Part shown: one piece after another, positions 13,514 through 39,608 of the stretch
How the letters are laid out: the number at the start of each line of letters is the position of its first letter
How positions within the stretch are numbered: position 1 is the stretch's first letter
Assembly: GCF_014863355.1 (NCBI RefSeq)
Contig: NZ_JACZEP010000003.1
Coordinates: 310,001 to 374,000 of the forward strand
DNA length: 64,000 nucleotides
Reading direction: 5' to 3'
Source: Aminobacter carboxidus
GTDB taxonomy: Bacteria > Pseudomonadota > Alphaproteobacteria > Rhizobiales > Rhizobiaceae
Notes under the pieces: generated by a model
The model's input: the letters and a program-made list of their open reading frames with translations, nothing else
Database searches by the model: none
Told to the model about the DNA's origin: nothing
Made by a program: the position numbers and the translations under genes

Positions 13514-13539
13514 CCGTAGCGAGGAACAACTCGCTACGG
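13514..13539. terminator. Hairpin between convergent operons
   Basis: Perfect 10-bp stem CCGTAGCGAG (13514-13523) and CTCGCTACGG (13530-13539) with loop GAACAA. It separates the sugar operon (ends 13500, plus) from the aminobenzoyl-CoA operon (ends 13534, minus) and overlaps the thiolase stop codon. It may act on both transcripts. Confidence 0.55.
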
Positions 13540-14736
13540 TCGGCTGATCAGCAGCGAAATACCCTGGCCGACGCCGATGCACATGGTGGCGAGCGCGCGT
13601 GTTGCGCCGCGCAGGTCGAGTTCCAACGCCGCTGTGAGCGCAAGACGTGCACCCGACATGCCGAGCGGGTGGCCGAGGGCGATCGCGCCGCCATTCGGAT
13701 TGACGTGGGCCGCATCGTCATGGAGGCCAAACGCTCGCATGCATGCCAGCGACTGCGCGGCAAAGGCTTCGTTGAGCTCGACAATGTCGATGTCGGTGAT
13801 GACAAGGCCAGCGCGTTCCAGGAGCTTTTGTGTCGAGGCGATCGGGCCGATGCCCATGATGCGGGGGGCTACGCCTGCGGTCGCCATGCCATCGACCTTG
13901 ACGAGCGGCTTGAGGCCGTAGCGTTCAACCGCGCGAGCGGACGCGACGATCACGGCCGCGGCCCCGTCATTGACACCAGACGCGTTGCCGGCGGTCACCG
14001 TGCCGCCATCTCTGAACGGTGCCGAAAGGCCCGCAAGCTTTTCGATCGTCGTTTCGCGCGGATGCTCGTCGTGTTCGACGACAGTCGCTTCGCCCTTGCG
14101 GCCCTTGATCGTGACAGGCGCGATTTCGCGGGCAAAACGGCCGCTTTTCTGCGCGGCGGCGGCACGAGCCTGGCTGCGTAGGGCGAAATGGTCCTGATCC
14201 TCGCGTGAAATGGAAAACTCGGCGGCAACGTTCTCGGCCGTCTCAGGCATGGAATCAATGCCGTATTGCTTTTCCATCAACGGATTGACGAAACGCCAGC
14301 CGATGGTGGTGTCGAAGATCTCGGCGCTGCGCTGGAACGCGCTTGAAGCCTTGGGCATGACGAAGGGCGCACGCGACATGCTTTCGACGCCGCCGGCAAT
14401 GATGATGTCAGCTTCTTCAAGCTTGATGGCGCGGGCGGCATAACCAACCGCGTCGAGGCCGGAACCGCAGAGGCGGTTGATAGTCGTTCCGGGCACCGAT
14501 ACCGGCAGGCCCGCAAGCAGGGCAGCCATGCGGGCGACATTACGGTTGTCTTCGCCGGCCTGGTTGGCGCAGCCGAGCACGACCTCATCGATCTGGTCGG
14601 CGGGGATGCCAGGATGCCGCGCAAGCGCTTCGCGAATGGCGTGTGCCGCGAGATCGTCAGGACGCACAGAGGCGAGCGCGCCGCCATAACGGCCGATCGG
14701 AGTGCGGACGCCACCTACGATGTATGCTTCGGTCAT
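13534..14736 (-). CDS. Acetyl-CoA acyltransferase (thiolase), beta-ketoadipyl-CoA thiolase-like
   Basis: 400 residues, normal for a degradative thiolase. The nucleophilic cysteine is C90 in [10 protein letters not shown]; the histidine is in [17 protein letters not shown] and the second cysteine in [10 protein letters not shown] near residue 386. It resembles PcaF/PaaJ-type thiolases, which cleave beta-ketoadipyl-CoA or related 3-oxo-acyl-CoA into acetyl-CoA and a shorter CoA ester. As last gene of the anthranilate operon it probably does the final cleavage of the opened ring. The start overlaps the preceding gene's stop (ATGA). Confidence 0.92.
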
Positions 14737-16712
14737 GGTGTCATGTCCTTGTGCGTTTCGGCGGCAAACATCGGCCCGCCCTTGTGCGCCGGAAAGCCGT
14801 AGCCATTGATCATCACCAGATCGATGTCGCTCGATCGCGCGGCGATGCCCTCAGTGAGCAAGGCAGTGCCTTCGTCGGCCATGGCGCGCAGCAGCCGGTT
14901 GACGATCTCGCCGGGCGTAAAGCTGCGGGGCGACATGTCCTTGGCCGCGCGTGCGGCCACAATCAACGCGGCGACTTCGGGATCGACGGACTTTTCACCC
15001 GACGAATAGTCATACCAGCCCTTGCCTGTTTTGCGGCCGAAACGGCCGGCCTCGCAAAGCTGGTCGGCGATCTCGACATAGCGCGCCTTGGGATCGCGCG
15101 TCGCCGCCTGGCGCTTGCGCCGAGCCCAGGCGATCTCGAGCCCGGCCATGTCGTAGACAGTGAAGATGCCCATCGGGAAACCGTAGGCTTCGAGTGCCGC
15201 GTCGATCTCTTCGGGTGCTGCACCGTCCTCGACCATGAACTCCGCTTCACGGCGATAGGCCGAGAAGATGCGATTGCCGATGAAACCTTCCGTGACACCG
15301 CAGACAACCGGCAGCTTGCCGAGTTTCCTGGCGAAAGCCAGCGCGGAGGCCAGCACGTCGGGCGCGGTTGCCTTGCAGTCGACAACCTCGACGAGGCGCA
15401 TGATGTTGGCCGGCGAGAAGAAATGCAGGCCGACCACGCGCTCAGGGTGAGCGGTCGCCGCAGCGATTTCGTCGGGGTTCAGGTAGCTGGTGTTGGTGGC
15501 GAGGATCGCGTCCGGCCTGACGATGCCGTCGAGCCGCTGGAACAGCGCGGTCTTGACGGTGAGATCGTCGAAAACAGCTTCGATGACGAGGTCTGCTGTA
15601 GCGAGTTCGCCGATGTTCGCAGTCACCGCCAGCCGCGCAAGGCATTCTTCGCGAACTGTCGTCGCAAGGCGCCCCGACTGCACCGACTTGTCGAGAATGC
15701 CTGCGATGCGTTCGCGCCCCTTGGTGGCCGCATCCTCTGTCTGCTCGACGCCGATGACGCGGTAGCCAGCTGTCAACGCTGCCACCGCGATGCCGGCGCC
15801 CATCAGGCCGGTTCCGACAATTCCTGCTGTCTCGATCTTGCGTGGGGCGACACTGTTGAGCTTGTCGACCTTGCCGGCCTGTCGCTCGGCGAAGAAGACA
15901 TGGCGAAGCGCTGCCGCCTCACGTGAATCGCGCAAGCGCAGGAAGGTGGCGCGCTCATCGGTAAGACCGTCCTGGAAGGTCGCCTCTGAGGCCAGCCGGA
16001 CGAGGCGAACAGCTTCCGCGGGCGCCGATTGGCCCCGCGATCTGGACAGGATCTTTTTCGATGCGGCGTCGACGGCTGCGGGCTCGGCGACGTGGACGTC
16101 GAGCAATCCGGTGCGCCTTTGCGGCTGGCCGGCAAGCTGATGGACGAGGCCGAGGGCGGCAGCCAGGTGATCGGCTGCAATGCCGTCAACGAGGCCGAGC
16201 TTGAGCGCTTCGTCCGGTTTGATCGTGCGGCCGCTACCGATCAGCTCGATGGCGGCGACGGTGCCGACGAGGCGCGGCAGGCGCTGCGTGCCGCCGGCGC
16301 CCGGCACGATGCCAAGCTTGACCTCCGGCATTGCGAAGCTTGCCGCCTCGCCGGCGATGCGGCCGTGGCAGGCGAGGGTGATCTCGCAACCGCCGCCAAG
16401 AGCTGCGCCGTTGACAGCTGCAACCACCGGCTTGCCGCAGTTTTCGAGGCGCTGCATGACCTCGGGCAGCGTCGGCTCGACCGGTGGCTTGCCGAACTCC
16501 CTGATGTCGGCGCCGCCGACAAAGGTGCGGCCGGCGCCGGTGATGACGACGCCGATGACAGTGCCAACGGCTGACGCATGGTCGAGTGCCTTGACCAGCC
16601 CCTGCCGGACATGCGCCGAGGTGGCATTGACGGGTGCATTGTCGATAGTGACGACGAGCACGCCGTCACGGATGCTGCCCGAAACGCTCTCCGAAAACCG
16701 CGTCGCGCTCAT
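14733..16712 (-). CDS. Enoyl-CoA hydratase / 3-hydroxyacyl-CoA dehydrogenase fusion (FadJ/FadB-like)
   Basis: 659 residues. The N-terminal ~190 form a crotonase domain ([14 protein letters not shown] and [12 protein letters not shown] build the oxyanion hole; [20 protein letters not shown] holds a catalytic glutamate). From about residue 285 there is an NAD-binding dehydrogenase ([20 protein letters not shown]) with [15 protein letters not shown] and the C-terminal 3HCDH domains. It hydrates an enoyl-CoA and oxidises the 3-hydroxyacyl-CoA. The frame is open upstream, but the start was placed at 16712 because the protein from there begins [20 protein letters not shown] like its family and the upstream part overlaps RidA. 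Position in the operon fits beta-oxidation of the ring-cleavage product. Confidence 0.92.
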
Positions 16713-16714
16713 GG

Positions 16715-17110
16715 CTATGCCGGGATGACCGCGGTGGCCTGGATCTCGATCTTGGCGCGGTCCTCGACCAGCGCCACCACCTGCATGGCGGCCATGGCCG
16801 GGAAGTGGCGGCCGATCACGTCGCGATAGGCCTGGCCGAGGCCGCGCAGGTTCTCGGTGTATTCCTTCTTGTCGGTGAAGTACCAGGTCATCGTGGTGAT
16901 GTGGTGCGGCTCGGCGCCGCCGGCCTTCAGCACGGCGACGACGTTTTCCAGCGTCTGGCGCACCTGGCCGACGAAGTCGTCGGTCTCGAACTGGCACTGC
17001 GCGTTCCAGCCGATCTGGCCGCCGACGAAGATGGTGCGGCCGCTGGCGGCGACACCGTTGGCGTAACCGATGGGCTTGGCCCAGCCTTCGGGTTGCAGGA
17101 TCTCATGCAT
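16715..17110 (-). CDS. RidA/YjgF-family enamine/imine deaminase-like protein
   Basis: 131 residues, the usual RidA size. [20 protein letters not shown] is the typical first half, and [15 protein letters not shown] the end with the conserved active-site arginine-containing strand replaced by DRAKIEIQ. RidA proteins hydrolyse reactive enamines and imines to ketones and ammonia. Its place inside the operon for an amino-substituted ring is telling: the product of the aminobenzoyl-CoA monooxygenase/reductase keeps an enamine nitrogen that must leave. The start was set at [10 protein letters not shown]. It overlaps the thioesterase stop by eight bases. Confidence 0.88.
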
Positions 17111-17519
17111 CTGACGTCTCCAGGCGGCTTTCGAGTGCGGCGCGGAGGTCGTCCGGCCAGGCAAGCGATTTGTGGGTATCGAGCGAGGTGGCGACCACGC
17201 TGTGGCGTGCGCTCCAGAGCAAGGTGCCGGCTGATGACACCTTGTGCTCTAGGTCGAGCGACGAGCGGCCGACGCGGCGAACGAACAGCTCGAAATCGAG
17301 CGTGTCGCCGTGGAAGCCGGGATGGACGAAGGTGAGGTCGAGCCGCACCGTCGGCGTGCCGATGCGCCGTGTAGCGATCAGCTCTTTCCACGGCACGCCT
17401 GCGTCGCCGAAGAATTCTTCCAGGACACCGACGAGGATGTTCAGGTAGGACGGGAAGTAGGCGATCCCGGACGGATCGCAGTCCCCGAAACGCAGCGGCC
17501 GAGAGGTGCGGAAGGGCAC
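17103..17519 (-). CDS. Acyl-CoA thioesterase (4-hydroxybenzoyl-CoA thioesterase family)
   Basis: 138 residues of hot-dog fold. FGDCDPSGIAYFPSYLNILV carries the family active-site aspartate (the usual motif is D-x-D-xx-G-xx-(Y/F)), as in 4-hydroxybenzoyl-CoA and YbgC-type thioesterases. It starts with GTG behind AGGAGCGCC and overlaps RidA. In the operon it may release CoA from dead-end aromatic CoA esters, or free an intermediate. The natural substrate is not known. Confidence 0.88.
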   Translation of the reverse strand: MPFRTSRPLRFGDCDPSGIAYFPSYLNILVGVLEEFFGDAGVPWKELIATRRIGTPTVRLDLTFVHPGFHGDTLDFELFVRRVGRSSLDLEHKVSSAGTLLWSARHSVVATSLDTHKSLAWPDDLRAALESRLETSDA

Positions 17520-17529
17520 GGCGGCGCTC

Positions 17530-18723: not shown

Positions 18724-18726
18724 GGC

Positions 18727-19575
18727 TCAGTTTCCCTTGAATTCGGGCTTGGACTTGGCGGCAAAGGCCTCGAAGGCGCGGCGAAAGTCACCGGTTGCCA
18801 TGCAGATCGCCTGCGCCTGCGCTTCGGATTCGATCAGCTGGTCGATGCCCATCGCCCATTCCTGGTCGAGCATCTTCTTGGTCATGGTGTGGGCGAACCA
18901 GGGTCCGTCGGCGATGTCGCGGGCGAATTTCTGCGCGGCACCCAGCAAAGCGGGGCGTTCATGCAGGGCGTTGTAGAAGCCCCAGGCATGGCCTTCGGCC
19001 GATGTCATGACACGGCCGGTGAACAAAAGCTCGGCGGCGCGGCCCTGGCCGATGATGCGCGGGAGGATGCCGCAAGCGCCCATGTCGGCGCCGGCAAGGC
19101 CGACGCGGTTGAACAGGAAGGCCGTCTTGGCCTCGGGCGTGGCGACGCGATAGTCGGATGACATGGCGAGGATGGCGCCGGCACCGGCGCAGATGCCGTC
19201 GACCGCAGCTATGACCGGTTGCGGGCAAGCGCGGATCTGGCGGACCAGGTCGCCGGTCATGCGGGTGAAGTCGATGAGGTCGGGCATCGACATCTTGGTC
19301 AGCGGCTCGATGATGTCGAAGACGTCGCCGCCGGAGGAGAAGTTGTTCTCGGCGCCACTGAGCACCACGGCGCGCACGTCGCTGGCGCGGCCGAGCGCGC
19401 GAAACAGATCCGTCAACTCCTCGTAGCTTTCGAAGGTCAGCGGGTTCTTCTTCTCGGGACGATTGAGCGTGATGGTCGCGACCTTGCCATCGGCATCGGT
19501 TTCGAACTTGAAGTGTTTCGCCTGATGGCCCTGGAAGGGACGCTTCTTGTCCTGCATCGGGTTGGTCATCGTCAT
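18727..19575 (-). CDS. Enoyl-CoA hydratase/isomerase family protein
   Basis: 282 residues with a single crotonase domain. [20 protein letters not shown] and [20 protein letters not shown] make the CoA-binding oxyanion hole; the second region [20 protein letters not shown] lacks a glutamate at the usual hydratase position and has aspartate instead, so it may be a ring-hydrolase or isomerase rather than a plain hydratase. The N-terminus is extended ([18 protein letters not shown]). ATGA-type overlap with the upstream SDR. Expected role: water addition or ring opening of the alicyclic CoA intermediate. Confidence 0.88.
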
Positions 19576-20354
19576 CCTCCCAGAACTTCGCCGCCGGCGA
19601 CCGGGATCGCCTGGCCGGTGATTGCGGTTGCCTTTTCCGAGGCGAGCCAGAGCACGGCGTCGGCCACTTCCTCAGGCGTTACCAGCCGCCCTTGCGGATT
19701 GGCGCGGGCAAGCGTTGCGCGAGCTTCTTCGGCCGAACGGCCGGTCTTGCCGGTGATGTTTTCCACTGCACCATCGAGCAGCGGCGTGTCGGTGAAGCCG
19801 GGGCAAACGGCATTGACGGTCACGTCAGTACGGGCGAGCTCGAGCGCCAGCGCGCGGGTCATGCCGACCACGCCATGCTTGGAGGCGCAGTAGGCGGAGA
19901 CATAGGCATAGCCGGTGAGGCCGGCGGTGCTGGCGACGTTGACGATGCGGCCCCTGCCGGCGCGCCTGATCGAGGCGAGTGCTGCCTGAATGACGAGGAA
20001 CGTGCCGGTGAGATTGATGCTGATCACCCGGTTCCAAGTGACGAGGTCGGTCTTGTCGAACGGTGCCGAAGGCGCTTCGCCGGCGCAATTGACCAGCACG
20101 GCAATTTCGCCTGCCTCGGCAATCGCCTTGACGACGCCTGCCTCAATCGACTGCGCATCGGTGACGTCGAAGCCGTCAAGTACAAAGGCTTCGCCGCCCG
20201 CCTGGGCGATTTCGTCGCGCACAGCCTCGAGCGGCGCGACTCGCCGTCCGCACAGGCTGACGCTGTGACCGTTGGCGGCGAGCACCAATGCGATGGCGCG
20301 GCCAATGCCGCTGCCGGCGCCGGTGACGAGCGCGTGACGCTTGGCTGTGCTCAT
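19572..20354 (-). CDS. SDR-family oxidoreductase
   Basis: 260 residues. The nucleotide site is [14 protein letters not shown]; the active site has serine in [11 protein letters not shown] and tyrosine/lysine in [23 protein letters not shown] closes it. These are features of a classical short-chain dehydrogenase, usually a 3-hydroxyacyl-CoA or alcohol dehydrogenase. It overlaps the monooxygenase stop and the hydratase start, so it is second in the operon. It probably oxidises or reduces the ring oxo/hydroxy group of the aminobenzoyl-CoA product. Confidence 0.9.
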
Positions 20355-22837: not shown

Positions 22838-22858
22838 AAACAGGGCCCGAGGGTCCTG

Positions 22859-23407
22859 TTATCGCGACAGATAGGTCGCCGTATCCACGAGTTCGCCATA
22901 GCCGAAGGCGATTGCTGCCATGACGGCGTCGTGGACCTGTGCGGCAGGCACGGTCTTGCCGTTGAATTCGAGGTCGCGCGTGGCGCAGGCGTCGTGAATG
23001 ACCGACGTCTTGTAGCCGAAGTCGGCGGCGGCACGCGTGGCGCCTTCGACGCACATGTGGCTCATCGCGCCGACGATGACGAGCTCTTCGATTCCGCCGG
23101 CATCCAGCGTCGCCTTGAGGTCGGTTTCGCGGAACGAATTGACGTAGTTCTTGGTGATGATCTTCTCACCGTCGGCCGGGGTGACAGCGGCATTGATCTC
23201 GATGCCGGCGGTGCCGGGCGCGAAGATCGGCGCGTCCGCCGCCTTCGAGACATGGCGGACGTGGATGACCGCGTCGCCCCGGGCGCGTGCAGCCGCGATG
23301 ACGCGGGCGGCATTTGCCGTCGCCTGCTCGATGCCGACGAGCGGCATCCTGCCACTGGGGAAGTATTCGTTCTGGATGTCGATGGCGATTACCGCGCGCT
23401 TGCTCAT
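22859..23407 (-). CDS. Isochorismatase-like cysteine hydrolase
   Basis: 182 residues with the complete cysteine-hydrolase triad: D10 in VIAIDIQNEY, K86 in IITKNYVNSF and C119 in GAMSHMCVEGATRAAAD. Members hydrolyse amides or enol ethers (nicotinamidase, N-carbamoylsarcosine amidase, isochorismatase, phenazine and hydrazide types). The start was placed at MSKRAVIAID, where the family begins, although the frame stays open upstream. It is divergent from a GlxA-type regulator 105 bases away, a common regulator/enzyme pair. Whether it takes part in tryptophan breakdown is not shown. Confidence 0.88.
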   Translation of the reverse strand: MSKRAVIAIDIQNEYFPSGRMPLVGIEQATANAARVIAAARARGDAVIHVRHVSKAADAPIFAPGTAGIEINAAVTPADGEKIITKNYVNSFRETDLKATLDAGGIEELVIVGAMSHMCVEGATRAAADFGYKTSVIHDACATRDLEFNGKTVPAAQVHDAVMAAIAFGYGELVDTATYLSR

Positions 23408-23438
23408 GTCCCTGATGCCTTTGCTGTTGGGAAGGATG

Positions 23439-23455
23439 TTGCACGAAAGATGCAA
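23439..23455. promoter_or_regulatory. Inverted repeat in divergent promoter
   Basis: TTGCA-N7-TGCAA lies between the isochorismatase-like gene (minus) and the GlxA-type regulator (plus). Its central place suggests an operator for the regulator. AraC-type proteins usually bind direct repeats, so this is uncertain. Confidence 0.35.
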
Positions 23456-23512
23456 TGGATTATGGTGCCGGCCCATTGGCGATATCGACATAACAAGGGG
23501 TGATTTCGACAA

Positions 23513-28000: not shown

Positions 28001-28065
28001 TCTTCAGCTTCGTCAAAAACAGGTGGCGGCGTCTATGACGCCGTTGCCTTTTTCGGGAGGGACGG

Positions 28066-28845: not shown

Positions 28846-28850
28846 TCATC

Positions 28851-31040: not shown

Positions 31041-31064
31041 TCTCAGGTCATATTGAAACGAAAA

Positions 31065-31247
31065 GGGCGGCTTTTGCCGCCCTCAGATTGATTACAAACC
31101 CCTCGTTTCTTGGCAGCAGTCAAAATCGAGGGGTTTTGATTCTGGTTTGTTCACGATCTGAATCTGTGACGTTCTGTGAATCTTGGGTGATTTAGGTGTG
31201 CCCGGAGGTTTGTCAGCAGTCTGAGGGCGGCTTTTGCCGCCCTTTTT
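31065..31247. terminator. Twin hairpins with opposite T-runs between kynU and the LivF-type gene
   Basis: The hairpin GGGCGGC-TTTT-GCCGCCC occurs twice: 31065-31082 and 31225-31242. The first has TTTT on its minus-strand side, the second has TTTTT on its plus-strand side. The plus transcript (kynU) would end at the second and the minus transcript (LivF) at the first. Between them is a third hairpin, AAACCCCTCG (31096-31105) with CGAGGGGTTT (31127-31136), followed by a T. The second hairpin begins right at the LivF stop codon. Confidence 0.7.
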
Positions 31248-31933
31248 CATACGCCGAGATAGCGGTCCTGGATCTCAGGCGTCAGGGCATCCGGTGCGCC
31301 TTGGAAGACCGTCACGCCCTTCTCCAGCACGAAGCAGCGATCGGCCACGGGCAGCAGCTCCGACAACGTCTTGTCGACAACGAGAATCGACTGCCCCGAT
31401 GCCTTGAGCTTGCGGATTGCAGCCCAGATGTCCTGACGGATGACGGGCGCTAGCCCCTCGGTCGCTTCGTCAAGAATGAGCAGGCTGGGATTGGTCATCA
31501 GCGCGCGGCCGATCGCCAGCATCTGCTGCTCGCCGCCTGACAGCGTGTTGGCATACTGGTCGCGACGTTCGCCGAGACGCGGAAACAGCTCGACCACCTT
31601 TTCCAGTGTCCACTCACTACCGCGTGCTGCGGCAAGCAGGTTTTCCAAGACGGTCAGATTGGGGAAGCAGCGTCGCCCCTCGGGCACCAGACCCAGTCCG
31701 AGGCGGGCGATGCGGTGCGGGCGCATGCCGGCAAGCTGGCGGCCGCCAAAGCTGATCGAGCCCGAGCGTGGTTTCGCCAGACCGAGTATCGAATTGATCG
31801 TCGTCGACTTGCCCATGCCGTTGCGGCCCATCAGCGCCACGACCTCGCCCTCGCGCACATCGAGCGAGACGCCGAACAGTGCCTGCGATGCGCCGTAGAA
31901 GGTTTCGACCCCTTTGAGTTCGAGCAGGCTCAC
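31247..31933 (-). CDS. Branched-chain-type ABC transporter ATP-binding protein (LivF)
   Basis: 228 residues. It has Walker A GRNGMGKST, the signature LSGGEQQMLAIGRALMTNPS and Walker B LILDEATEGLAP, which marks LivF rather than LivG. It starts with GTG overlapping the LivG stop. It is the last gene of an operon that begins with the CoA ligase and kynA, so this five-part importer probably carries tryptophan, kynurenine, anthranilate or another aromatic acid rather than leucine (inference). Confidence 0.92.
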   Translation of the reverse strand: MSLLELKGVETFYGASQALFGVSLDVREGEVVALMGRNGMGKSTTINSILGLAKPRSGSISFGGRQLAGMRPHRIARLGLGLVPEGRRCFPNLTVLENLLAAARGSEWTLEKVVELFPRLGERRDQYANTLSGGEQQMLAIGRALMTNPSLLILDEATEGLAPVIRQDIWAAIRKLKASGQSILVVDKTLSELLPVADRCFVLEKGVTVFQGAPDALTPEIQDRYLGV

Positions 31934-32679
31934 GCGGCTTCTCCGAGATAGGCCCGGCGGACTTCGGGGTCGTTGCGGATCTGGTCGACAGTGCCAGTGG
32001 CGATGACACGGCCGTAGACCAGAACCGAGATGCGGTCGGCGAGTGCGAAGACGGCATCCATGTCGTGCTCGACAAGCAGGATCGGCGCTTCATGGCGCAA
32101 ACCGTCGAGGAATTTTGTCAACGCTTTCGATCCTTCAGGCCCCATGCCGGCCATTGGTTCGTCGAACAGGAACGCCCTGGAGCCGAGCGCCAACGCAATG
32201 GCGATTTCGAGTTGGCGGCGTTCGCCATGCGACAGCTCGGCGGCGGCCACGTAAGCGCGACCGGCAAGGCCGACCCGCTCCAGCATCGCCATCGCCGGTT
32301 CGGTCAGGCTCTTGTCGCTCATGACAGGGCGGAAGAAGCGGAAGCTCGTTCCCTGACGTGCCTGCACCGCCAGCATGACGTTGCGAAGCGCGGAAAACTC
32401 CTGCGCCAGCGACGAGATCTGGAAGCTGCGGCCAAGTCCGAGACGCGCGCGGGCGGCCATGTCGAGCCCGGCCATGTCCTGGCCGAGGAAGCGGATGGTG
32501 CCGCTGTCGGGCCGGAACGAGCCCGAGATCTGGTGGATCAGCGTGCTCTTGCCGGCACCGTTGGGGCCGATCAGCGCATGAATCTCGCCCGGCCTGAGAT
32601 CAAGGCTGACGCTGTCGGTGGCCTTGAGCGCACCAAAGGTTTTCCTGAGGTCGCGGATTTCGAGGACCGGCTCAACCAT
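31930..32679 (-). CDS. Branched-chain-type ABC transporter ATP-binding protein (LivG)
   Basis: 249 residues: Walker A GPNGAGKST, signature LSHGERRQLEIAIALALGSR and Walker B FLFDEPMAGMGPEG, which is the LivG pattern, with the C-terminal NDPEVRRAYLGE tail. Its ATG is inside the end of the LivM-type gene and its stop overlaps the LivF start. It is the second ATPase of the importer. Confidence 0.92.
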   Translation of the reverse strand: MVEPVLEIRDLRKTFGALKATDSVSLDLRPGEIHALIGPNGAGKSTLIHQISGSFRPDSGTIRFLGQDMAGLDMAARARLGLGRSFQISSLAQEFSALRNVMLAVQARQGTSFRFFRPVMSDKSLTEPAMAMLERVGLAGRAYVAAAELSHGERRQLEIAIALALGSRAFLFDEPMAGMGPEGSKALTKFLDGLRHEAPILLVEHDMDAVFALADRISVLVYGRVIATGTVDQIRNDPEVRRAYLGEAA

Positions 32680-33643
32680 GACGCACCTTTCCGGCCAGCA
32701 GCCCGAGCAGGCCGCCGCGCGCGAACAGCACCACGCCGAGCAGGATCAGGCCGAGGAAGAACTGCCAGCGTTCGGTGATGCCGCCAAGCGCATATTCGAT
32801 CAACACGTAGAGCATGGCGCCGGCGACGGGTCCGAACAGTCGGCCTTTGCCGCCGAGGATGATGAGCACGATCAGTTCGCCCGACATGTGCCAGGACAGC
32901 ATCGACGGGCTGACGAACTTGTTGAGATCGGCGAACAGCGCGCCGGCGAGACCGGTGACCATCGCCGAGACAGCGAAGGCGATCAACCTGACATTGAAAG
33001 GCGTGATGCCGACTGCAGCCAGGCGCGTCGCGTTCTGCCGTGCCGCCTGAAGGGCAGCGCCGAAACGTGAGCCGCGTAGCAGCCAGAACAGGCCGAGGGC
33101 CGCCATGAGCACCGCATAGCAGATCAGGAAATAAGACAGCGGCTGGGTGGTATTCACGCCGGGGAATTCGTTGCGGACGTAGATCGAAAGTCCGTCCTCG
33201 CCGCCATAGGCCGGCCACGACACGGCGAAGTAGTAGATCATCTGCGCGAAGGCGAGCGTGATCATGATGAAGTAGACGCCCGTCGTGCGCAGACTGATCG
33301 CGCCGATCGGCAAGGCGATCAGGCCGCAGACCACCACCGCGACAAGCCAGATGATCGGCATCGATGCCGTGCCCGGAATGCCGGCGAACAGTGGCACGCC
33401 ATCGAATGCATGGGTGGCAAGGATGCCGGCCGCGTAGCCGCCGAGGCCGAAGAAGGCGGCATGGCCGAAAGACACCAGTCCACCGAGGCCGAGCGCGATG
33501 TTGAGGCCGACGGCGGCGAGCGCCAGGATGGCGATGCGGGTGGCAAGTGTGATGTAGAACGGCTCGCCCATGGCGGATGCGCCAAGCGGGACTGCCAGCA
33601 ACAGCAGCGCCAGCAGAATGTTGACGATGGTTTCGCGGCTCAT
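32672..33643 (-). CDS. Branched-chain-type ABC transporter permease (LivM)
   Basis: 323 residues, about nine to ten membrane segments. NIALGLGGLVSFGHAAFFGL and LRTTGVYFIMITLAFAQMIY are typical LivM segments. Two starts are possible: GTG 33655, overlapping the LivH stop, or ATG 33643, which has GAGGG before it; the ATG was chosen. It ends inside the LivG gene (eight-base overlap). Confidence 0.9.
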   Translation of the reverse strand: MSRETIVNILLALLLLAVPLGASAMGEPFYITLATRIAILALAAVGLNIALGLGGLVSFGHAAFFGLGGYAAGILATHAFDGVPLFAGIPGTASMPIIWLVAVVVCGLIALPIGAISLRTTGVYFIMITLAFAQMIYYFAVSWPAYGGEDGLSIYVRNEFPGVNTTQPLSYFLICYAVLMAALGLFWLLRGSRFGAALQAARQNATRLAAVGITPFNVRLIAFAVSAMVTGLAGALFADLNKFVSPSMLSWHMSGELIVLIILGGKGRLFGPVAGAMLYVLIEYALGGITERWQFFLGLILLGVVLFARGGLLGLLAGKVRHG

Positions 33644-33651
33644 GGCGGCCC

Positions 33652-34572
33652 TCACGACTGCGCCGCAAACAGGCCGCTCGGCCTGAAGGCAAGGATGAGC
33701 GCCATGACGATGTAGATCAGCATGGAGGCAAGTGCTGCACCGATCAGTCCGGCCTGTGCCGCCGGCATCATCAGCGCCAGGGCCTTGGGCAGCAGGAAGC
33801 GGCCCATTGTGTCGACGACACCGACGAGGATCGCACCAAACAACGCGCCCTTGATCGAGCCTATGCCGCCGATGACGATGACCACGAAGGCGAGGATCAA
33901 CGCCGGCTCGCCCATGCCGACCTGTACCGATTGCAGGGCACCGACAAGCGCCCCGGCAAGACCGGCAAGGGCAGCACCAAGTGCGAAGACGACGGTGTAG
34001 AGCGTACGGATATCGACGCCGAGCGCTGCGATCATCTCGCGGTCGGATTCACCGGCGCGGATGCGCATGCCGAGCCTTGTGCGCGAGATCAGCAGATACA
34101 GGCCCAGCGCGACCACCACCCCGACGCCGATGATGGCGAGGCGGTAAAGCTGGTACTGGCCGCCGCCGGGCAGGGGCACCGCACCTTGCAGCAGCGACGG
34201 GATGTCGAGATAGAGCGGGAACGAACCGAACAGCCAGCGTGTGCCTTCGGAGAAGATCAGGATCAGCGCGAATGTCGCCAGCACCTGGTCGAGATGGTCG
34301 CGGTCGTAGAGGCGGCGTATCACGGTCACCTCGATGATCGCGCCAGCTGCGGCCGCAGCGACCAGGCTCGCCGCAAGGCCGATCCAGAACGAGCCGGTGG
34401 CCGCCGCGACCGCCGCACAGGCAAAGGCGCCGATCATGTAGAGCGAACCATGGGCGAGGTTGATCAGGCCCATGACGCCGAAGATCAGCGTCAGGCCGGC
34501 GGCCATGAGGAACAGCATCACCCCGAGCTGTAGCCCGTTGAGAAGTTGCTCGATGAGCAGTGCGATGGACAA
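33652..34572 (-). CDS. Branched-chain-type ABC transporter permease (LivH)
   Basis: 306 residues with about eight membrane segments and the motifs LIFGVMGLINLAHGSLYMIG and GMRIRAGESDREMIAALGVD (the ATPase-contact loop). The only in-frame start that keeps the family N-terminus (SIALLIEQLLNGLQLGVMLF) is TTG at 34572. The RIME-like repeat separates it from the upstream binding-protein gene. Confidence 0.9.
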   Translation of the reverse strand: MSIALLIEQLLNGLQLGVMLFLMAAGLTLIFGVMGLINLAHGSLYMIGAFACAAVAAATGSFWIGLAASLVAAAAAGAIIEVTVIRRLYDRDHLDQVLATFALILIFSEGTRWLFGSFPLYLDIPSLLQGAVPLPGGGQYQLYRLAIIGVGVVVALGLYLLISRTRLGMRIRAGESDREMIAALGVDIRTLYTVVFALGAALAGLAGALVGALQSVQVGMGEPALILAFVVIVIGGIGSIKGALFGAILVGVVDTMGRFLLPKALALMMPAAQAGLIGAALASMLIYIVMALILAFRPSGLFAAQS

Positions 34573-34651
34573 GGGGACGCTTTCGCTGGCTGGATTGTCG
34601 GTTCAGTGCGGCGGGACGCCTGCCGCGCTTCTATGCGATATCGGAGGACGT

Positions 34652-34793
34652 CGACCCCCACTCCGGTTTGCTTCGCAAACCACCTCTCCCCCGTTCGACG
34701 GGGGAGAGGAAAAGCCGGCTGCGTCTTGGCTCCTTTCCTTACCCCCTTTTGAGGGGGAGAGGTGCCGAGCGCAGCGAGGCGGAGTGGGGGTCG
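34652..34793. repeat. RIME-like palindromic intergenic element
   Basis: About 142 bases bounded by a 14-bp inverted repeat, CGACCCCCACTCCG and CGGAGTGGGGGTCG. Inside are GGTTTGC-TTC-GCAAACC and CCTCTCCCCCG paired with CGGGGGAGAGG, plus a CCCCCTTTTGAGGGGG stem. This is the build of the short palindromic repeats (RIME-like) scattered between genes in rhizobia. It sits between the binding-protein gene and livH, within the presumed operon. Copies elsewhere in the genome cannot be seen here. Confidence 0.75.
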
Positions 34794-34808
34794 GACGCCC
34801 CATGTAAG

Positions 34809-34829
34809 GCTAGCCTGCTATTGGCTAGC
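34809..34829 (-). terminator. Hairpin after the binding-protein gene
   Basis: GCTAGCC (34809-34815) pairs with GGCTAGC (34823-34829) across a 7-base loop, directly after the stop codon of the binding-protein gene. It may protect the mRNA end or partly stop transcription, giving more binding protein than permease. Confidence 0.45.
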
Positions 34830-35965
34830 TACATCTTGCACTGTTCGGCGTAGGCGTCCTTGTGGTGTTCGAAGGCGGTGGCGACGATCTTGTTGGTTAG
34901 CACGTCGCCTTCCTTGACCACTTCACGCACGTAGATGTTCTGCACCGGGTGGTTGTTGGTGTTGAAGGCGAACTCGCCGCGCACCGACTTGAAGTCGGCC
35001 GCCTTGAGAGCGGCGCGGAAGGCATCCTTGTCCTTGACGCTTGCCTTCGACAGGGCTGCCAGGATCAGGTTTGCGGTGTCCCAGCTCTGGGCGGCGTAGA
35101 CCGAGGGCAGGCGCTTGTATTCGGCCTGGAAGGCTTCGACGAAAGCCTTGTTGGCTTCGTTGTCGAGGTCCTTGGACCAGCTGGCCGAGTTCTTGACGCC
35201 AAGGGCGGCGTCGCCAACCGCCGGCAGGATGTCCTGGTCGAAGGAGAAGCCGGGTCCCATGACCGGGATGTTTACGCCCGATTGGGCGTACTGCTTCATG
35301 AACGAGATGCCCATGCCGCCGGGCAGGAAGAAGAACACCGAGTCGGCACCGGAATCGCGGATCTGGGCGATCTCGGCGGCGTAGTCGGTCTGGCCGACCT
35401 GGGTGTAGACTTCACCCGCCAGCTCGCCCTTGTAGTAGCGCTTGAAGCCGGTCAGCGAGTCTTTGCCGGCGGGATAGTTCGGGGCGAGGATGAAGGTCTT
35501 CTTGTAGTCCTTGTTGGCGTATTGGCCCATCGCCTCGTGGAAGTTGTCGTTCTGGTAGGCGACGTTGAAATAGTTCTTGTTGCACTTGGCGCCGGCCAGC
35601 GCCGAAGGGCCGGCATTGGGCGACAGGTAGATAACGTCCTGCGCCACCGCATTCGGCACCACGGCCATGGCGAGGTTCGACCAGATGATGCCGGTCAATA
35701 GGTCGACCTTGTCGCTCTGGATCATCTTTTCGGCCAGCTGCACGGCGATCTCGGGCTTCTGGGCGTCGTCCTCGACGACCAGCTCGACATCCTTGTTGCC
35801 GGACTGCTTCATCGCCAGCGTAAAGGCATCGCGCATGTCGACGCCAAGGCCGGCACCGCCGCCCGAAAGCGTGGTGATGACGCCGATCTTGACCGGCTCG
35901 GCGTAGGCAAGGCTGGATGCCGCCAGTGACAGGCCGAAAATTCCGGCCGCAATGATCTTCTTCAT
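34829..35965 (-). CDS. Branched-chain-type ABC substrate-binding protein
   Basis: 378 residues with a signal peptide (cut after ASSLAYA, residue 22). The mature N-terminus EPVKIGVITTLSGGGAGLG is typical of the Leu/Ile/Val-binding (type I periplasmic) fold. Relatives with this spacing often bind aromatic acids. A strong ribosome site (AGGGAGGAG) precedes the ATG. It lies 42 bases downstream of kynA and upstream of the channel genes, so its ligand is probably tryptophan, kynurenine or anthranilate (inference). Confidence 0.9.
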   Translation of the reverse strand: MKKIIAAGIFGLSLAASSLAYAEPVKIGVITTLSGGGAGLGVDMRDAFTLAMKQSGNKDVELVVEDDAQKPEIAVQLAEKMIQSDKVDLLTGIIWSNLAMAVVPNAVAQDVIYLSPNAGPSALAGAKCNKNYFNVAYQNDNFHEAMGQYANKDYKKTFILAPNYPAGKDSLTGFKRYYKGELAGEVYTQVGQTDYAAEIAQIRDSGADSVFFFLPGGMGISFMKQYAQSGVNIPVMGPGFSFDQDILPAVGDAALGVKNSASWSKDLDNEANKAFVEAFQAEYKRLPSVYAAQSWDTANLILAALSKASVKDKDAFRAALKAADFKSVRGEFAFNTNNHPVQNIYVREVVKEGDVLTNKIVATAFEHHKDAYAEQCKM

Positions 35966-36007
35966 TAGATACTCCTCCCTAGTGTTCCCGTTGTTGTTTG
36001 AAGTCTG

Positions 36008-36844
36008 TTAGAGCCGGGTGCGAACTTTCCAGAGTTCCGGAAACAGTTCAACCTCCAGCATCTTCTTGAGGTACGAGGCGCCCGATGTGCCGCCAGTGCC
36101 GCGTTTCATACCGATGATGCGTTCGACCGTGGTGACGTGGTTGAAGCGCCAGCGACGGAAGTAATCTTCGAAATCAACCAGCTTCTCGGCCAGCTCGTAG
36201 AACATCCAGTAGCGTTGCGGATCGCGATAGATCGTCTGCCAGGCGACAAGCACCTCTTCGCTCTCGCTGCGGGTTTCGCGCCAGTCGCTACGCTTGCCGT
36301 CGGCACCGATGTCGAAGCCGTTGCGTCCGAGAAGCAGGATCGCCTCGTCGTAGAGCGAAGGCTGGGCGAGCACCGCTTCGAGCTTCTCGGCTAGTTCGGG
36401 CTGGTGCGCGTGTGGGCGCAGCATGGCGATGTTGCGATTGCCGGCCATGAACTCGATGGCGCGATACTGCCAGGACTGGAATCCCGAGGACTGGCCGAGC
36501 GAGTCGCGAAACTCGGTGTATTCGCTCGGCGTCATCGTCCTGAGAACGTCCCAGGCGCTGTTGAGCTGTTCGAAGATGCGCGACACGCGTGTCAGCATCT
36601 TGAATGACGGTTCGAGCCTGTCGGCACGGATCGAGCGGATCGCCGAGCCGATCTCATGCAGTGCGAGCTTCATCCACAGCTCGGAGGTCTGATGCTGGAT
36701 GATGAACAGCATCTCGTCATGAGCGGTCGAAAGCGGCGCCTGGGCGTCGAGAATCTTTTCGAGATGCAGGTAGTCGCTGTAGGACATGCGGTCCTTGAAC
36801 GACATCTGCGCGCCCTCGGTGGAGGGATCGTACGGCTTGCTCAA
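36008..36844 (-). CDS. kynA: Tryptophan 2,3-dioxygenase
   Basis: 278 residues. This haem enzyme opens the indole ring of L-tryptophan to N-formyl-L-kynurenine. [18 protein letters not shown] includes the distal histidine H51; [20 protein letters not shown] includes the haem-ligand histidine H236; [13 protein letters not shown] is the conserved C-terminal loop. The start is taken as TTG 36844, overlapping the ligase stop, because the segment [20 protein letters not shown] is part of the family N-terminus; ATG 36805 with GAGGG before it is an alternative. It is co-transcribed with the CoA ligase. Confidence 0.96.
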
Positions 36845-38466
36845 CTCATCTTCTCCGCGCGCAACCGGAAACGCTGGATCTTGCCGGTCTGGGTCTTGGG
36901 CAGGGCGTCGATGAACTTCACCGAGCGCGGGTACTTATACGGTGCGATCGTTGCCTTGACGTGATCCTGCAGCCGCTTGACGGTCGCGGCATCGGCGGCC
37001 ACGCCGGCGACCAGCACGACATAGGCTTCGACGATCTGGCCGCGTTCGCCGTCCTCGGCACCGATGACGGCGCATTCAGCGACTTCGGGATGCGAGAACA
37101 GGGCCGCTTCAACCTCGGGGCCGGCAATGTTGTAGCCGGCGCTGACGATCATGTCGTCGGAGCGGGCCGCGAAATGGAAGAAGCCGTCCTCATCCTGGTA
37201 GAAGGCGTCGCCGGTGACATTCCAGCCGTCGCGGACATATTCGAGCTGCCTGTCGTCCGACATGTAGCGGCAGCCGGTCGGGCCGCGCACGGCGAGCTTG
37301 CCGACAGTGCCGCGCGACACTTCGTTCATGTCGCCATCGACAATCCGCGCCTCATAACCGCCGACCGGCTTGCCGGTGGAAGCGGGCTTCATGTCCTCGA
37401 AGCGGTTGGAGATGAAGATGTGCAGCATTTCGGTGGCGCCGATGCCGTCGAGGATCGGCTTGCCTGTTTTGGCCAGCCACTCCTCGAACACCGGTCCGGG
37501 CAAGGTCTCGCCGGCTGATACCGCGACACGCAGCGACGACAGATCTGCACCTTCGTCCATTGCCTTGAGCATGGCGCGATAGGCGGTGGGCGCGGTGAAC
37601 GAGATCGTCGCCTTATAGGTCTCGATGATGTGGATCATGTTGGGCGGCGTCGCCTGCTCGAGCAGCGTCGCTGCGGCACCGAAGCGCAGCGGAAAAATGG
37701 CCAGGCCGCCAAGGCCGAAGGTGAAGGCGAGCGGCGGCGAGCCAACGAAGACGTCGTCGGAGGTCACCGAAAGCACCTCTTTGGCATAGGCGTCGGCGAT
37801 GATCAGCAGGTCGCGATGGAAGTGCATCGTCGCCTTCGGCACGCCCGTGGTGCCAGAGGTGAAACCGAGCAGGGCGACGTCGTCACGGCCGGTTTTCACA
37901 GCTTCGAAGATGACGGACTTGTCCAGTGCGATGCGATCGAGCTCGGCGTCGTGATTGGCGGTGCCGTCGAAGCCGATCACGGTCTTGAGGAAGGGACTGT
38001 CCTTGGCGCAAGCGACCATTTCATCCATGAGCCGCGTGTCGCAAAGCGCGATGGTGATCTCGGCCTTGTCGACGATCTTGGTGAGTTCGCCGGCGCGCAG
38101 CATCGGCATGGTGTTGACGACGACAGCCCCTGTCTTGGTCGCGGCAAGCCAGCAGGCGACCATGGCGGGGTTGTTGGCCGAGCGGATCAGCACGCGGTTG
38201 CCAGGCTTGACGCCGTAGTTCTCGACCAGCGCATGGGCGAGGCGGTTGGTCCAGTCGGACAGCTCCTTGTAGGTGCGGCGGCGGCCATTGCCGATCAGGG
38301 CGGTGTGATCGCCCAGGCCCTTTTCGACCAGGCGATCGGTCAGCTCGACGGCTGCGTTGAGATGCTCGGGATAGTCGAAGCCATCGAGGAGGAAGTCCGG
38401 CCACTGTCCCTCAGGCGGCAGGTTGTCGCGGGTGAAGGTGTCGATATGCGCTGACGGTCCGAGCAT
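36841..38466 (-). CDS. Benzoate-CoA ligase family protein, probably 2-aminobenzoate-CoA ligase
   Basis: 541 residues of the ANL superfamily. The ATP loop is [18 protein letters not shown]; the adenylate site has [15 protein letters not shown] and [20 protein letters not shown]; the catalytic lysine is in [15 protein letters not shown]. The LHIFISN segment is typical of benzoate/2-aminobenzoate ligases. It makes the aryl-CoA with ATP and CoA. Genomic context (kynA overlapping it, kynureninase and aminobenzoyl-CoA monooxygenase nearby) points to anthranilate as substrate, like the Azoarcus abmG product. The operator-like site at 38683 lies upstream. Confidence 0.92.
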
Positions 38467-38780
38467 TCTGCGGCTGTCCCCTACCTGCTCCTCGGCATGA
38501 CGGAGCCGTCATGCGTGCGTTGGAATGCGTTACTTCGGGGGAGGTGCCGCGCCACAACGGGGCAGCCGTTCGGCACAGGCCGCGGCACCCATCTTGCGCG
38601 ATCGGCATTGCGACCGGCGTCTGGCACAGCGAGACCTCCCACGTTCTCGACTGATGGCCGAGAATTGCACCGGACCAAAATTATTTCAAGCATAAAGTTT
38701 CTGGCTCTGGCCCATTGACGCGATCCGGCCCGCTGGCCATTGCTATGCGCCTGATTGCTGCCGCTTGGAGGGATGCCCGC
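38467..38780. other. Divergent promoter gap between CoA ligase and formamidase-like gene
   Basis: 314 bases without a supportable gene. The minus-strand side carries the ligase leader. The only clear signal is the putative MarR operator at 38683-38698 in a locally AT-rich stretch (38675-38702). The plus strand holds the ribosome site GGAGGG at 38767-38772. Confidence 0.5.
38683..38698. promoter_or_regulatory. Putative MarR operator between ligase and formamidase genes
   Basis: ATTTCAAGCATAAAGT matches the site at 22766-22781 (ACTTCAAGCTTAAAGT) at 14 of 16 bases. It lies in the divergent gap and could control both directions, linking kynA and ligase expression to the monooxygenase operon. Confidence 0.6.
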
Positions 38781-39608
38781 ATGCTCGAACGCCGTATCGC
38801 CGATTGGGACAACGCCTACACCAATGGCGCCAACATCGCCGGCGGCGACCGTTGGCCGGCCGCGTGGGTGGAGCCGGCGCAGTCGTTTCGCGACACCTTG
38901 TCGGCGACCGATAGGGCGCAGCTCGACATCGGCTACGGCGACAAGCCGCGCAACCGGCTCGACTTGTTCCTGCCTGAAGGCACGCCCAAGGGACTCGTCG
39001 TTTTCGTGCATGGCGGCTACTGGATGGCGCTCGACAAGAGTTACTGGTCGCATCTCGCCAAGGGCTCCGTCGATTTGGGCTACGCGGTGGCGATGCCCTC
39101 CTATACCTTGTGTCCGGAAGTCAGGATCGGCAACATCGTGCGTGAAGTCGGCGCGGCGATCGGCAAGGCAGCCGGACTGGTCGAAGGCCCGATCATGCTG
39201 ACCGGCCATTCCGCTGGTGGTCACCTTGTCTCGCGCATGGTCGCATCAGGTTCGCCGCTGGCGCCGGAGGTCCAGGCGCGCATCCGCCATGTCGTCTCGC
39301 TGTCGGGGGTGCATGATCTCAGGTCGCTGATGAACACCGGCATGAACAAGACGCTGCACATCGACGAAGCCGAGGCGTTGGCCGAGAGCCCGGCGCTGCT
39401 GCGGCCGATGGCCAACGTCCGCATCACCTGCTGGGTCGGCGGCGGCGAGCGCGCCGAGTTCCTGCGCCAGAACGACTTGCTCGCCAACATCTGGACCGGC
39501 CTTGGTGCTGCGACCGGTGCAGTGGTCGAACCCGACCGGCATCATTTCAGCGTCATCGACGGACTTGCCGACAAGGATCACGCGCTGACACGGACCTTGC
39601 TTGGCTGA
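38781..39608 (+). CDS. Alpha/beta-hydrolase, kynurenine formamidase-like
   Basis: 275 residues. HGGYW at residues 77-81 is the hallmark of arylformamidase-type hydrolases, and the nucleophile is S144 in LTGHSAGGHL; a late HHFSVIDGL segment supplies the catalytic histidine. Arylformamidase turns N-formylkynurenine into kynurenine. The N-terminus WDNAYTNGAN fits the family, and GGAGGG eight bases before ATG 38781 supports this start over the TTG at 38715. Divergent from the kynA/ligase operon, it fills the second step of tryptophan breakdown. It is not the metal-dependent KynB fold. Confidence 0.88.
   Translation: MLERRIADWDNAYTNGANIAGGDRWPAAWVEPAQSFRDTLSATDRAQLDIGYGDKPRNRLDLFLPEGTPKGLVVFVHGGYWMALDKSYWSHLAKGSVDLGYAVAMPSYTLCPEVRIGNIVREVGAAIGKAAGLVEGPIMLTGHSAGGHLVSRMVASGSPLAPEVQARIRHVVSLSGVHDLRSLMNTGMNKTLHIDEAEALAESPALLRPMANVRITCWVGGGERAEFLRQNDLLANIWTGLGAATGAVVEPDRHHFSVIDGLADKDHALTRTLLG

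What the first reader, a model, noticed from the sequence alone, without database searches (positions are those of the whole stretch)
13534..39608. Complete tryptophan-to-beta-oxidation supercluster through 2-aminobenzoyl-CoA
Within 26 kb there is a candidate for every step: tryptophan 2,3-dioxygenase (36008-36844), HGGYW-type formamidase (38781-39608), kynureninase (29793-31040), aryl-CoA ligase (36841-38466), two-domain aminobenzoyl-CoA monooxygenase/reductase (20351-22678) and beta-oxidation-like enzymes (13534-20354). Two importers and several regulators lie between them. The lower CoA route is known for anthranilate in Azoarcus evansii; its direct joining to the kynurenine route, with shared candidate operators, suggests a dedicated system for full use of tryptophan.
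Basis: partly seen in the sequence, partly recalled or inferred. Interest (0 to 1): 0.85.

Follow-up and report, generated by a model that had tools for sequence, protein, structure and literature searches.

The report
Joined tryptophan-to-anthranilate-CoA breakdown cluster
A soil bacterium keeps, side by side, genes that look able to take tryptophan apart through kynurenine and anthranilate and on through CoA-bound intermediates, and the same joining of the two halves recurs in differently arranged gene clusters of other bacteria, so it looks like one working system that can now be tested.

Summary
Comparison supports the interpretation: TDO lies 11-16 kb from ACMR on the 22 best-matching TDO plasmid records (of 40 listed) and within 25 kb in 8 of 26 genomes holding both genes in a 249-genome phylum sample, in five arrangements, some compact. 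A MarR-type palindrome heads both the ACMR and the ligase-TDO operons and is kept in relatives. No KynB over cut-off was found in the genome. The Rid protein is in 78 of 80 ACMR loci and lacks the deaminase arginine in 85 of 85 rows. Against: in most genomes with both genes they lie apart; all chemistry is inferred; Cupriavidus metallidurans, annotated with both gene sets, did not grow on anthranilate. The route had been guessed from genomes before; the joined cluster was not met in the papers searched. New variant of a known kind.

The parts
13534..14736 (-). 3-oxoadipyl-CoA thiolase (PcaF type), last beta-oxidation step
   Evidence: TIGR02430 663 bits over cut-off 597
14733..16712 (-). FadB-like enoyl-CoA hydratase/3-hydroxyacyl-CoA dehydrogenase
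   Evidence: PF00378, PF02737, PF00725; start
16715..17110 (-). Rid-family protein lacking the RidA Arg-105 (Met instead); proposed deaminase of the ring enamine
   Evidence: PF01042 70 bits; Met in 84, Ile in 1 of 85 rows; in 78 of 80 ACMR loci
17103..17519 (-). hotdog acyl-CoA thioesterase
   Evidence: PF13279
17530..18723 (-). acyl-CoA dehydrogenase
   Evidence: PF00441 and others
18727..19575 (-). crotonase-fold enzyme; candidate ring hydrolase
   Evidence: NF006107 464 bits over cut-off 330; role inferred
19572..20354 (-). short-chain dehydrogenase
   Evidence: PF00106
20351..22678 (-). 2-aminobenzoyl-CoA monooxygenase/reductase (ACMR): FAD monooxygenase plus old-yellow-enzyme domain
   Evidence: NF006101 1352 bits; PF01494 + PF00724
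22765..22780 (-). MarR-type operator upstream of the ACMR operon
22859..23407 (-). isochorismatase-like cysteine hydrolase (accessory; seen in 2 of 80 named loci, both Aminobacter)
   Evidence: PF00857
23513..24487 (+). GlxA/FtrA-type AraC regulator (accessory; 2 of 80 named loci)
   Evidence: NF006902 161 bits, below its cut-off 425
24497..25021 (-). MarR regulator, proposed repressor at the shared operator
   Evidence: PF01047/PF12802; in 16 of 16 kynurenine-linked named loci
25118..26086 (-). PLP-dependent enzyme (PALP), role unknown
   Evidence: PF00291
26083..26862 (-). GntR/FCD regulator, proposed regulator of trpXZY-kynU
   Evidence: PF00392, PF07729
26887..26930 (.). two copies of an AATTATATAT site between GntR and trpX
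   Evidence: 3 matches against 0.13 expected; alike in relatives
27014..29774 (+). TrpX-type ABC importer (binding protein, ATPase, permease)
   Evidence: NF041285 184.5 bits, below its cut-off 390; 6hni, 3lkv
29793..31040 (+). kynureninase
   Evidence: TIGR01814; 1qz9 E 1e-141
31247..35965 (-). Liv/Urt-type ABC importer (five genes)
36008..36844 (-). tryptophan 2,3-dioxygenase (start probably 36805)
   Evidence: TIGR03036; 2nox E 1e-107
36841..38466 (-). anthranilate-CoA ligase-like enzyme
   Evidence: 4wv3 best; 54% identical to the Rue61a plasmid ligase
38682..38697 (-). second copy of the MarR-type operator, upstream of ligase-TDO and divergent from the hydrolase
38781..39608 (+). alpha/beta hydrolase with HGGYW and GHSAGGH motifs; N-formylkynurenine formamidase candidate
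   Evidence: 2pbl, and Drosophila kynurenine formamidase 4e11 E 2.5e-15; NF058665; context

Best explanation
The region is a catabolic supercluster for tryptophan and kynurenine by way of anthranilate-CoA. TDO opens the indole ring; the alpha/beta hydrolase removes formate; kynureninase gives alanine and anthranilate; the ligase makes 2-aminobenzoyl-CoA; ACMR hydroxylates and reduces it to 2-amino-5-oxocyclohex-1-enecarbonyl-CoA; the Rid-family protein hydrolyses the ring enamine and frees ammonia; the SDR and the crotonase-type enzyme reduce and open the ring; acyl-CoA dehydrogenase, FadB-like protein and thiolase finish by beta-oxidation. The TrpX-type importer, with kynureninase and under GntR, brings in tryptophan or kynurenine; the Liv-type importer probably brings in anthranilate or a related acid. 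A MarR repressor sits at two operons and is released by a pathway compound, perhaps 2-aminobenzoyl-CoA. Shown here by sequence: the genes, their conserved joining, the repeated site. Inferred: all substrates, the order of the lower steps, which regulator binds which site, the ligands.
For: Families over cut-off. TDO 11-16 kb from ACMR on the 22 best of 40 listed TDO plasmid records. Of 20 named ACMR genomes tested (of 80; mostly the closest) all 20 have TDO, 15 of 20 linked to ACMR. Order sample: ACMR in 31, TDO in 20, both in 16 of 121 (Fisher 2e-8), 5 of 16 within 25 kb. Phylum sample: 33, 42, 26 of 249 (Fisher 3e-18), 8 of 26 within 25 kb. Compact clusters. ACMR tree: linkage in two deep branches, at least 4 changes forced. 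Operator: 78 of 89 ACMR upstream regions with 3 or fewer mismatches against 2 (reversed pattern) and 0 (shuffled); ligase 37 of 48 against 2 and 1. A ligase of Arthrobacter Rue61a, taken to be the 54% relative on its plasmid, was shown to be active on anthranilate (PMC3534580, passages). The only two Rieske alpha subunits found in the genome are nearest to glycine betaine monooxygenase, below that model's cut-off.
Against: No activity or growth data. NCBI names the ACMR family after salicylyl-CoA. 18 of 26 phylum-sample genomes with both genes have them far apart or on other contigs, and 11 of 16 in the order sample. The other 18 of the 40 listed TDO plasmid records are not among the 40 listed ACMR records (both lists capped). 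C. metallidurans CH34, annotated with kyn and abm genes, did not grow on anthranilate and is said not to use tryptophan. The genome also has a 3-hydroxyanthranilate dioxygenase and a second kynureninase, so another fate of kynurenine is open. Samples are not independent by descent. The Rid protein fails the published arginine criterion for deaminases.
Confidence: 0.8

Rival explanations
1. The ligase and ACMR work on salicylate (salicylyl-CoA to gentisyl-CoA), and lie beside the kynurenine genes without being part of one route.
For: NCBI names this family 'bifunctional salicylyl-CoA 5-hydroxylase/oxidoreductase'.
Against: Recurrent linkage to kynureninase and TDO in several arrangements; best solved ligase relative is an anthranilate-CoA ligase; relative with shown anthranilate activity; beta-oxidation and Rid genes fit ring opening of an amino compound; no gentisate dioxygenase among the window proteins scanned (not every ORF was scanned).
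Confidence: 0.07
2. The cluster serves anthranilate from several sources (indole acetate, kynurenine, outside); the kynurenine genes are only one feeder, and the joining reflects shared regulation, not a dedicated tryptophan system. This does not exclude the best explanation; it narrows 'dedicated'.
For: 64 of 80 ACMR loci have no kynurenine gene within 10 kb; in Azospirillum thermophilum the module sits behind indolepyruvate oxidoreductase and Rieske genes, in Arthrobacter Rue61a on the quinaldine plasmid; the Liv-type importer travels with the module without kynurenine genes in the stretch shown.
Against: In this lineage and in the compact clusters TDO and ligase stay with it, mostly with kynureninase and hydrolase, and the operator heads ligase-TDO.
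Confidence: 0.3
3. Kynurenine made here goes mainly to 3-hydroxyanthranilate (NAD synthesis or the 3-hydroxyanthranilate route) elsewhere in the genome.
For: 3-hydroxyanthranilate 3,4-dioxygenase at G000:C1:980670 and a second kynureninase at G000:C7:20888.
Against: The dioxygenase lies with a monooxygenase most like 2-methyl-3-hydroxypyridine-5-carboxylate oxygenase (256 bits), far better than kynurenine 3-monooxygenase (61 bits), and with an aldehyde dehydrogenase and an importer. Kynurenine 3-monooxygenase was not searched for in the whole genome.
Confidence: 0.08

Closest known systems
Aerobic 2-aminobenzoyl-CoA (abm) pathway of Azoarcus/Aromatoleum evansii (Schuehle 2001; paper not held, known through the review PMC4539516, passages)
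   Same: Ligase, ACMR, beta-oxidation enzymes, genes on a plasmid
   Different: Joined here to TDO, formamidase candidate and kynureninase with a shared site; the A. evansii genes were not compared, as no sequence was at hand
Bacterial kynurenine route to anthranilate (TDO, KynB, kynureninase)
   Same: TDO and kynureninase over family cut-offs
   Different: Formamidase candidate is an alpha/beta hydrolase, not KynB; anthranilate is proposed to go to a CoA ester
Quinaldine/anthranilate plasmid pAL1 of Arthrobacter sp. Rue61a
   Same: Ligase (54%), ACMR (49%), Rid protein with Met at the arginine site, a gene annotated as thioesterase
   Different: Quinaldine, not tryptophan, is the upper route; PaaX-type regulators
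Animal kynurenine formamidase (Drosophila 4e11) and 'hormone-sensitive lipase' HaHSL (PMC6921082)
   Same: alpha/beta fold, HGG and GxSAGG motifs; HaHSL family model over cut-off
   Different: A term search of the HaHSL paper's main text finds no kynurenine or formamidase; genomic context says formamidase

Membership tests
Kynurenine pathway to anthranilate | TDO and kynureninase | tested here: met
   TIGR03036 and TIGR01814 over cut-off; solved relatives aligned over nearly full length
KynB formamidase (TIGR03035) | family model over cut-off in the genome | tested here: not met
   best match 28.7 bits against cut-off 223
alpha/beta-hydrolase kynurenine formamidase | HGG-x-W oxyanion motif (motif name recalled), catalytic Ser and His motifs, kin of a solved formamidase | tested here: met
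   alignments show HGGYW, GHSAGGH, HHFSVID; 4e11 E 2.5e-15
alpha/beta-hydrolase kynurenine formamidase | hydrolysis of N-formylkynurenine | not testable with these tools
   context only: 9 of 11 close relatives lie within 10 kb of TDO or kynureninase
2-aminobenzoyl-CoA pathway | two-domain ACMR | tested here: met
   NF006101; PF01494 + PF00724
2-aminobenzoyl-CoA pathway | anthranilate-specific CoA ligase | tested here: inconclusive
   nearest solved relative 4wv3; 54% to the Rue61a plasmid ligase; no assay
2-aminobenzoyl-CoA pathway | CoA intermediates in cells | not testable with these tools
   needs LC-MS
RidA-type imine deaminase | arginine equivalent to RidA Arg-105 | tested here: not met
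   Met in 84 and Ile in 1 of 85 rows; criterion from PMC5619798, passages
Salicylyl-CoA/gentisate route | gentisate 1,2-dioxygenase in the cluster | tested here: inconclusive
   none among the window proteins scanned; not every ORF, and not the rest of the genome, was searched for it

The most novel reading that the evidence does not exclude
The Rid-family protein tied to ACMR is a new kind of Rid enzyme that hydrolyses a CoA-bound cyclic enamine, 2-amino-5-oxocyclohex-1-enecarbonyl-CoA, and so supplies the deamination step of this pathway. It lacks Arg-105 because its substrate carries a thioester where RidA substrates carry a free carboxylate. With it, the cluster is a complete, self-regulated tryptophan-to-central-metabolism system assembled more than once, using an animal-type formamidase in place of KynB.
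Probability: 0.45. Interest if true: 0.7.

Novelty: new variant of a known kind. Interest (0 to 1): 0.55.

Why it matters
It ties two halves of aromatic catabolism into one regulated unit in soil, root and marine bacteria, gives a concrete set of genes for the poorly known steps after ACMR, suggests that a family named after a 'lipase' is the kynurenine formamidase of many bacteria that lack KynB, and points to a Rid subfamily whose substrate may be a CoA-bound enamine. Ruegeria pomeroyi DSS-3 carries a compact version, so it can be tested in a cultured, named strain.

Tried and rejected
KynB as formamidase: rejected (28.7 bits). Mutual exclusion of KynB and the hydrolase as proof: no genome of 121 has both, but with 5 and 11 holders only about 0.5 is expected to, so this alone proves nothing (my arithmetic). 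Anthranilate 1,2-dioxygenase as rival for anthranilate: the two Rieske alpha subunits found are nearest to glycine betaine monooxygenase, below cut-off. Third operator site at G000:C15:42716 (1 mismatch): beside an autotransporter and an amidohydrolase, no link seen. Genome-wide, sites with up to 2 mismatches are hardly more frequent than for the reversed pattern (8 against 6), so only the two exact sites carry weight, and the pattern was made from them. Operator test on the window alone: weak (7 of 300). No site with 3 or fewer mismatches upstream of kynU (37), trpX (18), TDO (29) or SDR (71); 1 of 27 for livK, 14 of 39 for MarR. The 3-hydroxyanthranilate locus as a kynurenine route: its monooxygenase matches another family best. 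Classical RidA role: fails the arginine test. No structure predictions were run.

Full report
WHAT IS THERE. The window is G000:C23:310001-374000 of a 6.29-Mb genome. The best named relatives of ACMR are Aminobacter species (94-97% identity; the best 80 of at least 591 relatives were kept); in complete Aminobacter records the region is on plasmids of 0.36-0.58 Mb. NCBI's annotation of an A. niigataensis plasmid has the same order with both genes, and an IS1182 transposase beside kynU. Transcription blocks by gene direction: ACMR-SDR-crotonase-ACAD-thioesterase-Rid-FadB-thiolase; trpXZY-kynU; ligase-TDO-Liv importer; the hydrolase diverges from the ligase.

IS THE JOINING MORE THAN CHANCE? Plasmids: 93 records match TDO, 40 are listed; the best 22 (9 Aminobacter, 13 Ensifer/Sinorhizobium/Shinella) are all in the ACMR list, 11-16 kb away (starts compared by eye); the other 18 listed TDO records are not among the 40 ACMR records listed of 394, so they were not tested. 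Named genomes: I gave 20 of the 80 loci (L001-L017, L019, L056, L075; L018 and the rest not given); 20 of 20 have TDO; in 15 it is linked to ACMR (12 on the same contig, up to about 3 kb outside the 10-kb flank, contig lengths agreeing; 3 inside the locus), in 5 it is not (G005, G014, G015, G016, G019; G015 lies on short contigs; in G005 kynU is linked although TDO is not). Within 10 kb, 16 of 80 loci hold kynU (42% identity or more) or TDO; some loci are cut by contig ends. Order sample of 121 genomes: ACMR (E up to 1e-250) in 31, TDO (1e-80) in 20, both in 16 (5.1 expected; Fisher 2e-8); 5 of 16 within 25 kb, one more at about 30 kb, 10 far or on other contigs. The strict limit drops at least one ACMR genome (G055, 6e-250). 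Phylum sample of 249: 33, 42 and 26 (Fisher 3e-18), 8 of 26 within 25 kb, 8 on one contig but far apart, 10 on different contigs; there only four candidates per genome were scored for ACMR, and the two samples share genomes. Kin are not independent, so the p-values are only a guide; the stronger point is the variety of arrangements.

ARRANGEMENTS. (a) Three blocks, as in the window: Aminobacter, Ensifer, Shinella. (b) Mesorhizobium type: trpXZY and GntR, ACMR-SDR-crotonase-ACAD-Rid, then TDO-kynU-ligase in the other direction (L017, L075, L122), with a different kynureninase (54%). (c) Compact: hydrolase divergent from ACMR-SDR-MarR-crotonase-ACAD-ligase-kynU-TDO (L087, L088, L121; L119 has TDO before kynU); Rid is seen in L087 and L119, not in the stretches of L088 and L121. 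L120 lacks the hydrolase in its stretch; L089 and L090 lack kynU and hydrolase there. (d) L118, a 7.2-Mb genome of the same order. (e) L117, outside the class: TDO-kynU divergent from ACMR-MarR-crotonase-ACAD-ligase-Rid. Ruegeria pomeroyi DSS-3 has TDO and an alpha/beta hydrolase (50% identical to the window's) divergent from ACMR-SDR-MarR-crotonase-ACAD-cupin-ligase-Rid; kynureninase is not in that stretch. A quick tree of 88 ACMR proteins (22 labelled linked) has linked copies in two deep branches; 5 changes of label, at least 4 forced (the tool warns of long branches).

THE LOWER MODULE IS PORTABLE. In Comamonas odontotermitis, Sulfitobacter guttiformis and Paracoccus denitrificans the ACMR module with ligase, Liv importer, thioesterase and Rid stands without kynurenine genes in the stretch shown. 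In Azospirillum thermophilum ACMR-SDR-crotonase-ACAD-thioesterase-Rid sits behind indolepyruvate oxidoreductase, Rieske dioxygenase and an AMP-binding gene; indole or indole acetate as the source is my inference. In Arthrobacter Rue61a ligase, ACMR, Rid and a thioesterase lie on the quinaldine plasmid. So the module appears to be plugged onto whatever makes anthranilate.

REGULATION. The two sites are the only exact genome matches to CTTTAWGCTTGAARTW (about 0.02 expected by base counts, my estimate; pattern built from these sites). With 3 or fewer mismatches it is upstream of ACMR in 78 of 89 loci (reversed pattern 2, shuffled 0), of the ligase in 37 of 48 (2 and 1) and of MarR in 14 of 39 (1 and 0). 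Many of these loci are not kynurenine-linked, so the site belongs to the ACMR module in general. All 20 ligases with 2 or fewer mismatches are neighbours of TDO; where the ligase lies inside a compact cluster the site is missing before it and present before ACMR (L087-L090), so it follows operon heads. MarR is in 16 of 16 kynurenine-linked named loci. That MarR binds here is inferred. Between GntR and trpX lie two AATTATATAT sites, alike in relatives; a GntR paralogue (56%) lies beside the second kynureninase of the genome, which suggests that GntR controls kynureninase.

FORMAMIDASE. No KynB over cut-off in the genome. The alpha/beta hydrolase is related to 2pbl and, more distantly, to Drosophila kynurenine formamidase. 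In the 121-genome sample 48 genomes have some relative (E up to 1e-30), 11 one of at least 260 bits; 9 of these 11 lie within 10 kb of TDO or kynureninase (not G064, G084), two of them (G070, G125) beside kynureninase in genomes without TDO at the limit used. KynB over cut-off is in 5 genomes, each beside kynureninase or TDO; none has both, which at these numbers may be chance, and three of the five have weaker, unlinked hydrolase relatives (155-176 bits) (read off the tables). Of 20 TDO genomes 8 have the close hydrolase, 4 KynB, 8 neither; two of those 8 (G090, G126) have a more distant hydrolase (41%) within 1 kb of TDO. NCBIfam names the family after HaHSL; that paper's main text does not mention kynurenine or formamidase (PMC6921082, term search), and PMC4243253 (passages) treats prokaryotic formamidase as KynB. 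I hold the formamidase role at about 0.8.

RID PROTEIN. It is in 78 of 80 named ACMR loci, the most frequent partner counted (SDR 76, ACAD 66, crotonase 63; identity limits differ by gene). The residue matching RidA Arg-105 is Met in 84 and Ile in 1 of 85 rows, and Met also in the Arthrobacter and Ruegeria proteins. By the published criterion (PMC5619798, passages) it should not be an imine deaminase of the known kind. Yet other Rid-like proteins deaminate enamines in aromatic pathways (PMC6449761, passages), and in Rue61a a CoA ester of C7H8O4, perhaps cyclohexanedione-carboxyl-CoA, was found only in anthranilate-grown cells (PMC3534580, passages), as expected after deamination. That Arg-105 holds a substrate carboxylate is recalled; a CoA thioester has none, which would explain its loss. 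This is a hypothesis.

KNOWN OR NEW. The 2-aminobenzoyl-CoA route is known (PMC4539516, passages). Cupriavidus metallidurans CH34 is described with both kyn and abm genes but did not grow on anthranilate (PMC8879955, passages) and is said not to use tryptophan (PMC2842291, passages), so genes alone do not prove the route. A Streptomyces paper speculates on tryptophan to anthranilate and lists the abmG ligase (PMC9277890, passages). No paper in the held library has both 'aminobenzoyl-CoA' and 'kynureninase', and the listings of searches (titles and abstract starts; others were capped lists) showed none on a joined cluster. Subscription papers, including Schuehle 2001, are not held, so this is a limited statement.

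VERDICT. Observation confirmed with additions; interpretation supported at the level of genes, order and a shared site; chemistry inferred. New variant of a known kind.

Noticed in passing
L086 (G000:C7:13000-31000), kynU at 7763-9112: Second kynureninase in the genome (59% identical), beside a GntR paralogue (56%), with a DapA-like protein and an amino-acid ABC binding protein nearby.
   Followed up: partly
L116 (G000:C1:972000-990000): 3-hydroxyanthranilate dioxygenase with a monooxygenase most like 2-methyl-3-hydroxypyridine-5-carboxylate oxygenase, aldehyde dehydrogenase, DapA-like protein, metallo-beta-lactamase-fold protein and a Liv-type importer: a possible ring-opening cluster for another compound.
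   Followed up: partly
L084, Azospirillum thermophilum plasmid: The ACMR module placed behind indolepyruvate oxidoreductase and Rieske dioxygenase genes, perhaps an indole or auxin route.
   Followed up: no
L042: Record titled Bacillus subtilis SK6B4 whose ACMR groups with Pseudochrobactrum (L062): probably a mislabelled or mixed assembly.
   Followed up: no
window 22859-24487: Isochorismatase-like hydrolase and GlxA/FtrA regulator pair between ACMR and MarR, seen in only 2 of 80 named loci, both Aminobacter.
   Followed up: no
window 25118-26086: PALP enzyme that travels with the cluster (11 of 16 linked loci) but lies after GntR in Aminobacter and after kynU in Ensifer and Shinella; role unknown.
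   Followed up: no
window 39608-39879 against L082: A. niigataensis has a TonB-dependent receptor between the hydrolase and the iron ABC genes; the window has no room for it there.
   Followed up: no
window 51278-63126: Cytochrome bd subunit I, a 1000-aa PAS hybrid histidine kinase and SecDF outside the cluster.
   Followed up: no
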